Positions 14,461 through 56,002 of a stretch of DNA of 64,000 bases are shown piece after piece. The translations under genes and the position numbers were made by a program. Origin of the DNA: Gloeomargarita lithophora Alchichica-D10 (GTDB taxonomy: Bacteria > Cyanobacteriota > Cyanobacteriia > Gloeomargaritales > Gloeomargaritaceae); NCBI RefSeq assembly GCF_001870225.1, contig NZ_CP017675.1, positions 1,049,756-1,113,755 on the forward strand, read 5' to 3'. Positions within the stretch are counted from its first letter, which is position 1, and the number at the start of each line of letters is the position of its first letter. The notes beneath the pieces were generated by a model that was not told the origin of the DNA, did not search any database, and saw only the letters and a list, made by a program, of their open reading frames with translations.

Positions 14461-14556
14461 TGGGCACCTCTACTTATACGAGCCAGCAGAAAGTTATCTC
14501 GCTGGAATGCAGGTATTACTGAGAAGCAGTGACGGGGGCGGTGCCCGTGCGACCCT
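14461..14556 (+). repeat. Dispersed MITE-like repeat, group 1, 3'-truncated copy
   Basis: Begins TGGGCACCTCTACTTATA, the left end shared with copies at 21420, 48472 and 55877, continues through the common interior (CAGCAGAAAGTTATCTCGCT and TATTACTGAGAA) and ends in the GC-rich core GACGGGGGCGGTGCCCGTGC. The expected right end (TAGAGGTGTCC) is missing. It lies in the rnc-M15 peptidase gap immediately upstream of a small orphan reading frame. Confidence 0.75.
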
Positions 14557-14564
14557 TTTGTTGA

Positions 14565-14720
14565 ATGTGTTGCCTGATTTTGGTGAATTGGTATAAAAAC
14601 AAGGGGCTTACCTTGCCTGTAACCCATCAGCATAAAAAAGGCCGCATAAAACAATTAGAAAAAGTGCGTAAAATTGATCCTAAAACCCTGGAAGCATTCC
14701 GCCAAAACGATACGAATTGA
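14565..14720 (+). pseudogene. Small orphan reading frame or gene remnant beside a repeat
   Basis: A 51-codon frame starting MCCLILVNWYKNKG and ending in a lysine-rich, helix-like tail (KQLEKVRKIDPKTLEAFRQ) just before the stop. The tail has codon use and composition that look coding, whereas the start is abrupt and abuts the truncated repeat. It may be the surviving 3' end of a gene cut by the repeat. Bases 14603-14630 resemble bases 27249-27285 elsewhere in the window, so part of it may itself be repeat. I do not recognise the protein. Confidence 0.3.
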
Positions 14721-48471: not shown

Positions 48472-48767
48472 TGGAACACCTCTACTTATTCGCAATTATA
48501 GAGAATTATCTCGCTAGAGGCCATCTCTATTCATTTGCACCAGCAGAAAATTACAGTCTTTTAAGTAGTTATGGGATATAGTTGAAATCCCTCTCGCCGT
48601 AGATCAATCATGCTGATAGCTTGCGTGGCGTAGCCATGCTTTTAGAATAATCAAGGTTTTTTGTATCCCTTAATTTACAAATAGACTGTAACTCGCTGGA
48701 ATGCCAGTATTACTGAGAACCAGGGACGGGGGCGGTGCCCCTGCGACCTATTTTTAGAAGTGTCCTA
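48472..48767 (+). mobile_element. Compound group-1 MITE-like repeats, with a nested insertion
   Basis: It opens with GGAACACCTCTACTTATT and a partial D-type unit (GAGAATTATCTCGCTAGAGG), then restarts with ATCTCTATTCATTTGCACCA, continues as the group consensus (CAGCAGAAAATTA then ACTCGCTGGAATGCCAGTAT after a nested insertion), passes the core GACGGGGGCGGTGCCCC and ends TAGAAGTGTCCTA. It lies in the trmD-truncated gene gap and directly abuts the 181-bp element. Confidence 0.75.
48552..48690 (+). mobile_element. Nested MITE-like element, TACAGTCT ends
   Basis: TACAGTCT at 48552-48559 is inverted exactly as AGACTGTA at 48683-48690. It interrupts the group-1 consensus between AGAAA(A/G)TTA and CTCGCTGG, where uninterrupted copies at 14461 and 55877 read straight through. 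Outermost TA at both ends fits TA-target duplication. No coding capacity. Confidence 0.75.
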
Positions 48768-48768
48768 T

Positions 48769-48949
48769 TGGGACTTTATAAGTTTTAAGCCCTAAAACAG
48801 GCTCAAGCTCAAGCACGACAGGCAAAACACATCGACAAGGTAAAAATGGCTGGAACCCAGTCGCATCAAGAAAATATGCTGATCGAGGTAAAACAATTGC
48901 TGTGTCTAGGTCTGAGGCCGTTTAGGAGCCAGTTTCTCTCAAAGTCCCA
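48769..48949 (+). mobile_element. 181-bp MITE-like element, copy 1
   Basis: Bounded by TGGGACTTT and AAAGTCCCA, a perfect 9-bp inverted repeat. I see no difference from the copy at 55386-55566. The left neighbour is CTAT, the right TTAA, so no matching target duplication remains. The right boundary is immediately followed by coding-like sequence. It has no plausible gene of its own. Confidence 0.85.
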
Positions 48950-54791: not shown

Positions 54792-55813
54792 CTAGGAATT
54801 TGATTGGGAGCGAGCCTGTGCCTCAGGAATCCATTTTTTCTGAAGGAGTTTCTGAATATCATTTTGAATTGCATCTAGGTCAAGTTCCACCCCTTGCCAT
54901 GCTAATATATTATTGCCTCGTAGCAGAATAGTACCATCATAAAGTTGGAAAATAAAGGTGTAGTCAGCTACGGTCTTATTCATATTCCATATAGAATTGT
55001 CCTTAATATCAAACAAAGAAAAGTATTTTTTGTCCACAAAAAAAGCATTGGTAATAGTCGTTGCAATCAACTCATACCCTTTCTTACGAGCAAGATGAAT
55101 CAATGCCGCCAGCGATGAACCTTGATTAACTGACATATCCCTAGGTTGCACAAATTCAACTTGATGGGGAATCGTTGGATTGAACTCAATCAATACTAAT
55201 TTTGGTCGGTAGGTTTGTAAGGAATCCCAAATATGCCAATCATTGCCATCTACATCAATAGAAATCAGATCAAAATCTTTAGGGACCGGAGTTTGGATGA
55301 AAATACTATCCAGACTATTCTCTCCTTCAAAACTCACTAATCTACGAGCACAGATTACCTGTGGATGATCCTCATATCGTTCTATTGGGACTTTATAAGT
55401 TTTAAGCCCTAAAACAGGCTCAAGCTCAAGCACGACAGGCAAAACACATCGACAAGGTAAAAATGGCTGGAACCCAGTCGCATCAAGAAAATATGCTGAT
55501 CGAGGTAAAACAATTGCTGTGTCTAGGTCTGAGGCCGTTTAGGAGCCAGTTTCTCTCAAAGTCCCACTATCAGTTTTTGGTAACTATCCAAGCGAGCTTC
55601 AATCTGGACAGAATACCAGCCTTTTTGGTTAATTAAGGTGTGGGTATTACTCAAATTGAATCCATCACCCGCCCCAAACTCAACGCAAAAATAATCATCC
55701 TGCTGGGGCAGAATCTCAAAGATTTTAGCAATAATTCCATCTTCACCGTATTGGGAAGTGATATTGTGGGCATAAGAATTTAACCAATCATTATTCAGGG
55801 GTGGGTTGGTCAT
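54792..55813 (-). pseudogene. FkbM-like methyltransferase gene split by a 181-bp element
   Basis: Two parts of one gene. The 5' part (from ATG 55813) reads MTNPPLNNDWLNSYAHNITS and includes the SAM-binding segment CVEFGAGDGFNLSNT, then DSYQKLI before running into the element. The 3' part resumes ERYEDHPQVICARRLVSF and contains the DLISIDVDGNDWHIW motif of FkbM-like methyltransferases. Deleting the element and one CTAT copy joins KLI-ERYED exactly. The 3' part can still be read from a TTG in the element (MPVVLELEPVLGLKTYK), giving a chimeric frame with doubtful function. Confidence 0.85.
55386..55566 (+). mobile_element. 181-bp MITE-like element, copy 2, inside the methyltransferase gene
   Basis: Ends TGGGACTTT and AAAGTCCCA form a perfect 9-bp inverted repeat; CTAT stands on both sides (55382-55385 and 55567-55570), a likely 4-bp target duplication. 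I compared it base by base with copy 1 and saw no differences. No transposase is encoded. Confidence 0.9.
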
Positions 55814-55876: not shown

Positions 55877-56002
55877 TTAAGGAGCACCTCTATAAATTGC
55901 AAATTAGCGGTCGCAGGGGGGCACCCCCCGTTCTTCTCAGTAATACCGGCATTCTAGCGAGATGACTTTCTGCTGGTTGAAATAAATAGAGGTGTTCTTT
56001 AA
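55877..56002 (-). mobile_element. Group-1 MITE-like repeat, reverse orientation
   Basis: The left end TTAAGGAGCACCTCTATAAA and right end TTTATAGAGGTG-like AATAAATAGAGGTGTTCTTT are imperfect inverted repeats flanked by TTAA. Interior segments are the reverse complement of the 14461 copy (TTCTTCTCAGTAATACCGGC, CTAGCGAGATGACTTTCTGC). The rest of the 55814-56102 gap has no gene. Confidence 0.8.

What the first reader, a model, noticed from the sequence alone, without database searches (positions are those of the whole stretch)
54792..55813. Precise split of an FkbM-like methyltransferase by a 181-bp element
Seen: deleting 55386-55566 plus one CTAT restores a continuous frame KLI-ERYED with no change. 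The element has 9-bp perfect inverted ends and a 4-bp direct duplication. Inference: this is a recent insertion, since the second copy in the window looks identical and the host gene has no other lesions.
Basis: seen in the sequence. Interest (0 to 1): 0.8.

Follow-up and report, generated by a model that had tools for sequence, protein, structure and literature searches.

The report
Small jumping-DNA insert in methyltransferase gene
A 181-base, protein-less jumping DNA element, present in about 38 near-identical places in this one cyanobacterial genome, has landed in and broken a methyltransferase-like gene; this is a clean example of a well-known kind of event.

Summary
55386-55566 is a 181-bp element with 9/9-bp terminal inverted repeats (TGGGACTTT...AAAGTCCCA), flanked by CTAT at 55382-55385 and 55567-55570. 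Taking out the element plus one CTAT gives an unbroken 278-codon reading frame. Seven homologues from other phyla run through the site without an insert.

The element is a MITE. The same 3.05-Mb genome holds 34 full-length and about 5 partial copies, 97.8-100% identical, in several subfamilies. Of 33 full copies with readable flanks, 28 carry an exact 4-bp duplication, all NTAN. Natural empty sites exist in the genome: a repeat paralogue, and a CRISPR array whose neighbouring repeats lack the insert. No other genome searched has the element.

The likeliest mechanism is mobilisation in trans by an IS701-type transposase (inferred). The finding is real but ordinary: a new MITE family of a known kind, with a recent burst. 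The FkbM label is borderline (just under the Pfam cut-off).

The parts
55386..55566 (+). MITE, 181 bp, copy 2 of the window (G000:1105141-1105321)
   Evidence: 9/9 TIR, no transposase ORF, 34 full genome copies
55386..55394 (+). left terminal inverted repeat TGGGACTTT
55558..55566 (-). right terminal inverted repeat (AAAGTCCCA on + strand)
55382..55385 (.). target-site duplication CTAT, left copy
55567..55570 (.). target-site duplication CTAT, right copy
54792..55385 (-). 3' part of the interrupted methyltransferase gene (197 codons and stop)
   Evidence: joined frame; weak PF05050
55571..55813 (-). 5' part of the interrupted methyltransferase gene (ATG at 55813)
   Evidence: joined frame; homologues aligned through
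48769..48949 (+). identical MITE, copy 1 of the window (G000:1098524-1098704), no target duplication (CTAT / TTAA)

Best explanation
[quoted passage not shown] It inserted at a CTAT target in a methyltransferase-like gene, duplicated the 4 bp, and split the gene by a frameshift and stop. Shown: insertion anatomy, copy number, the 4-bp NTAN duplication, natural empty sites, and absence from all other genomes searched. Inferred: it has no transposase of its own and was moved in trans by an IS701-family DDE transposase that recognises ends beginning xGGGACT and cuts at NTAN with a 4-bp stagger; two copies of such an IS lie in the same genome. The copies spread in one or more recent bursts from several master sequences. 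The methyltransferase is therefore probably inactive now, unless a fragment works alone.
For: 39 matches in the genome, 34 full length. 28 of 33 full copies with readable flanks have an exact 4-bp duplication and 28/28 of these read NTAN. Seven copies are identical, and the 13-copy subfamily is identical within itself. Empty sites: L037 (TSD ATAG) against the paralogous repeat at L083 that reads straight through the site; a CRISPR array with the insert in one repeat (CTAA|MITE|CTAA) and about 20 neighbouring repeats without it. MT homologues align without a gap at the site. Helper: a cyanobacterial IS701 element with perfect 16-bp ends CGGGACTTAAACAAAA and TSD TTAG (NCBIfam IS701 324.8 bits); its transposase is 80% identical to two loci in the own genome, whose visible ends are TGGGACTCAAAG with NTAN neighbours GTAT and CTAA; plasmid relatives duplicate TTAG, GTAG, ATAA.
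Against: The MITE and the resident IS701 share only 7 terminal bases exactly; subterminal similarity is weak (shuffle p 0.02-0.05), so the MITE is not a plain internal deletion of that IS. Large parts of both IS701 copies are withheld (N), so it cannot be seen whether either encodes a full transposase, and the far ends are unseen. IS5-group elements are also said to use 4-bp YTAR targets (my recollection); the IS5-like element looked at in this genome has other ends.
Confidence: 0.93

Rival explanations
1. The MITE is moved by a transposase of another family (IS5 group or an IS since lost or withheld), and the shared TGGGACT with the resident IS701 is coincidence.
For: Only 7 terminal bases are shared exactly; the genome also has IS5-like and IS630-like transposases.
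Against: The IS5-like element has different ends (TAGGTCGTGTTGATCTT). IS701-type ends carry xGGGACT plus the same 4-bp NTAN duplication in several genomes. The published IS701 consensus has ACT at end positions 5-7 and exactly 4-bp duplications (PMC2266710), which the MITE fits.
Confidence: 0.2
2. The element is a domesticated repeat that adds a functional module (protein extension, promoter, or programmed frameshift) to the methyltransferase rather than a lesion.
For: One minus-strand frame is open from inside the element into the C-terminal part of the gene (216-codon ORF from a TTG).
Against: 185 added bases shift the frame; the 5' part stops 3 codons after the last native residue; homologues have no insert; the same element sits in unrelated genes and in CRISPR arrays.
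Confidence: 0.03
3. The element is a fixed structural or REP-type repeat and the target duplications are chance.
For: The RNA folds somewhat better than shuffles (z -2.0 and -2.5).
Against: 28/33 exact 4-bp duplications against about 1/256 each by chance, plus empty sites.
Confidence: 0.01

Closest known systems
IS701 family (IS4-related DDE insertion sequences; cyanobacterial subgroup with CGGGACTTAAACAAAA ends)
   Same: Ends xGGGACT, exact 4-bp target duplication of NTAN type, cyanobacterial host, resident in the same genome
   Different: The MITE is 181 bp, encodes no transposase, shares only 7 exact terminal bases with the resident IS and no clear interior
Other prokaryotic MITEs, e.g. Chunjie of Geobacter uraniireducens (178-235 bp, 37 further copies with conserved ends, one disrupting an operon) and Nezha of cyanobacteria (review PMC10969869)
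   Same: Size, copy number, inverted ends plus duplication, occasional gene disruption
   Different: No sequence relation was tested; the ends and target reported here were not found in the papers read

Membership tests
MITE | Short (<~600 bp), no transposase gene | tested here: met
   181 bp; no ORF that could encode a transposase
MITE | Terminal inverted repeats | tested here: met
   9/9 perfect
MITE | Target-site duplication | tested here: met
   28 of 33 full copies with readable flanks, 4 bp
MITE | Multiple dispersed copies | tested here: met
   34 full + ~5 partial
MITE | Mobilised by a transposase in trans | not testable with these tools
   needs a transposition assay
IS701-type non-autonomous derivative | 4-bp target duplication | tested here: met
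   family value in PMC2266710
IS701-type non-autonomous derivative | Ends matching a resident IS701 element | tested here: inconclusive
   TGGGACT shared, then divergence; p 0.02-0.05 for the next 33 bp
IS701-type non-autonomous derivative | Interior is a deletion remnant of an IS701 element | tested here: inconclusive
   no blastn similarity beyond 9-10 bp, but only one end of the resident IS is readable
FkbM methyltransferase (PF05050) | Score over the curated cut-off | tested here: not met
   21.9 bits against 22.7, E 2e-4, over residues 105-171; no NCBIfam match

The most novel reading that the evidence does not exclude
The MITE burst is a main recent shaper of this genome's accessory and defence loci: copies interrupt two CRISPR arrays, an N6-adenine DNA methylase gene, an integrase-like gene and others, more often than random landing would give. 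The excess was not tested.
Probability: 0.08. Interest if true: 0.45.

Novelty: new member of a known kind. Interest (0 to 1): 0.22.

Why it matters
It gives a clean natural gene knock-out and a young MITE family (judged young by copy identity) with a plausible helper in a small cyanobacterial genome. Most of its value is for annotation: the two half-genes around 55.4 kb should be called one pseudogene, and about 38 repeats in this genome get a name. MITEs paired with the IS701 family appear little described: only two papers in the searched library hold both terms, and neither is on this subject by title and abstract.

Tried and rejected
Looked for an autonomous element with exact TGGGACTTT ends around every genome occurrence of that 9-mer: only MITEs and MITE composites. 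The Pfam profile PF13546, used as a stand-in for IS701 transposases, found nothing in the own genome; this was misleading, because most of the transposase region of both IS701 copies is withheld; a transposase from another cyanobacterium found them. The IS5-like and IS630-like elements were considered as helpers; the IS5-like one has other ends, and IS630 elements duplicate TA only (my recollection). A phylum-wide DNA search gave only short matches, weak in E-value, outside the own genome. Exact-pattern scans of genome and viral collections, and similarity searches of plasmids and phages, gave none. The 1254592 copy at first looked like a longer relative with another left end; it is an older MITE holding another repeat and a second MITE.

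Full report
Observation. Reading 55380-55573 on the + strand gives TT-CTAT-TGGGACTTT...AAAGTCCCA-CTAT-CAG. The 9-mer occurs four times in the 64-kb window, only at the ends of the two copies, against 0.85 expected. Joining the gene across the element and one CTAT gives 278 codons and a stop with nothing else changed; unjoined, the frame from the ATG ends three codons after the last native residue.

Genome context. The window lies in a single-contig genome of 3,049,282 bases; that it is a cyanobacterium is inferred from its relatives and matches. The size agrees with my recollection of Gloeomargarita lithophora; this was not tested. The element has 39 matches there, 34 of full length. Full copies fall into subfamilies by shared substitutions relative to the window copy: 13 identical copies with 48A/67G/76T, 7 identical to the window's, 4 with 48A/149A, 3 with 14A/48A/90T, and singletons. 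Thus several master sequences amplified, recently enough that most copies have no private change (inference).

Insertion signature. Of 33 full copies with readable flanks, 28 have an exact 4-bp duplication. All 28 have T and A at the two middle positions; the first base is C in 15, A 6, T 4, G 3; the last is G 12, A 8, T 8, never C. Copies without a match, such as window copy 1 at 48769-48949 (CTAT/TTAA), may come from recombination between copies or from later change (inference). Two natural empty sites in the same genome show the event directly. The copy at 869.9 kb lies in ...AACAGCATAG|MITE|ATAGGGAAAAC..., while a paralogous repeat near 2190.8 kb reads straight through. The copy at 1396.5 kb lies in one repeat of a CRISPR array, CTCCTAA|MITE|CTAAGAATG, whose neighbouring repeats read CTCCTAAGAATG.

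Distribution. None of 38 other genomes near the window's, six of the same genus, holds the element. A draw of 386 genomes of the phylum gave only short, weak matches besides the own genome. Plasmid and phage similarity searches and exact-pattern scans of genome and viral contigs gave none. The tools warn that records of this very genome may be left out of some collections.

Host gene. The joined 278-residue protein has homologues at 47-50% identity in planctomycete, verrucomicrobial and proteobacterial metagenome-assembled genomes, and a more distant one (35%) in a Lachnospiraceae genome. All seven run through QKLI|ERYED without an insert. PF05050 (FkbM) matches at 21.9 bits, just under its cut-off of 22.7, so 'FkbM-like' is fair and 'FkbM' is not proved. 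The gene is 38% G+C in a 53% G+C window. In the genus only one other genome (G002) keeps a trace, a 93-bp tail of the gene at another place. The gene is therefore patchy and probably dispensable (inference).

Helper. A survey of PF13546 (DDE_5) transposases in the class turned up one element (L118) with perfect 16-bp ends CGGGACTTAAACAAAA and TSD TTAG. Its transposase is IS701 family by NCBIfam. The same protein finds two loci in the own genome at 80-81% identity over its last 133 residues. Their visible ends read TGGGACTCAAAG (the longer stretch TGGGACTCAAAGAAAAATCAAGCCC), with GTAT and CTAA next to them. Related plasmid elements mostly end in CGGGACTTA with TTAG, GTAG or ATAA duplications. 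A published survey gives IS701 exactly 4-bp duplications and a terminal consensus with ACT at positions 5-7 (PMC2266710), which TGGGACTTT fits. I therefore think it most likely (about 75-80%) that an IS701-family transposase moves this MITE. The interior of the MITE does not resemble the visible IS, and the subterminal likeness is weak, so cross-mobilisation, or origin from a diverged IS701 relative, is likelier than simple deletion of the resident IS. Much of both IS copies is withheld, so their coding capacity is unknown.

Confidence. The figure of 0.93 is for the MITE-insertion reading as a whole; the IS701 helper step alone stands at about 0.75-0.8, and its main rival at 0.2.

Verdict. Real, precise, recent, and ordinary: a new family of a known kind of element.

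Noticed in passing
L022 1405-3132 (G000 ~1396.4-1398.1 kb), MITE at 1501-1681: A MITE copy sits inside one repeat of a CRISPR array (repeat GTTTCAATCCTCATTCACTCCTAAGAATGAATGCAAT, about 20 copies in the stretch read).
   Followed up: partly
L033 (G000:2204314-2205494), MITE at 501-681: Another MITE copy sits in a spacer of a second CRISPR array (repeat GTGCTCAACGCCTTACGGCATCAAAGGAATTGGAAC).
   Followed up: partly
L002, L006, L026, L029 (MITE at 1501-1681 in each): Further copies split open frames: glutaredoxin/MauE-like, photolyase FAD-domain, N6-adenine DNA methylase and phage-integrase-family genes.
   Followed up: partly
window 48689-48759, 14495-14565, 55909-55961: A GC-rich dispersed repeat of about 70 bp, also found near MITE copies (7 of 33 within 200 bp); nature unknown.
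   Followed up: partly
L067 6893-7374 (G000:1254592-1255073): Nested stack: an older MITE (TSD ATAA) holds a ~115-bp repeat of another family and a second MITE (TSD CTAT).
   Followed up: partly
L098 1501-1593 (G002:442731-442823): A same-genus genome keeps only a 93-bp 3' relic of the methyltransferase gene, in a different gene neighbourhood.
   Followed up: partly
L074 2551-2789 (G000:2062250-2062488): A MITE with an internal tandem duplication of its last ~58 bp (239 bp in all), still flanked by CTAT on both sides.
   Followed up: no
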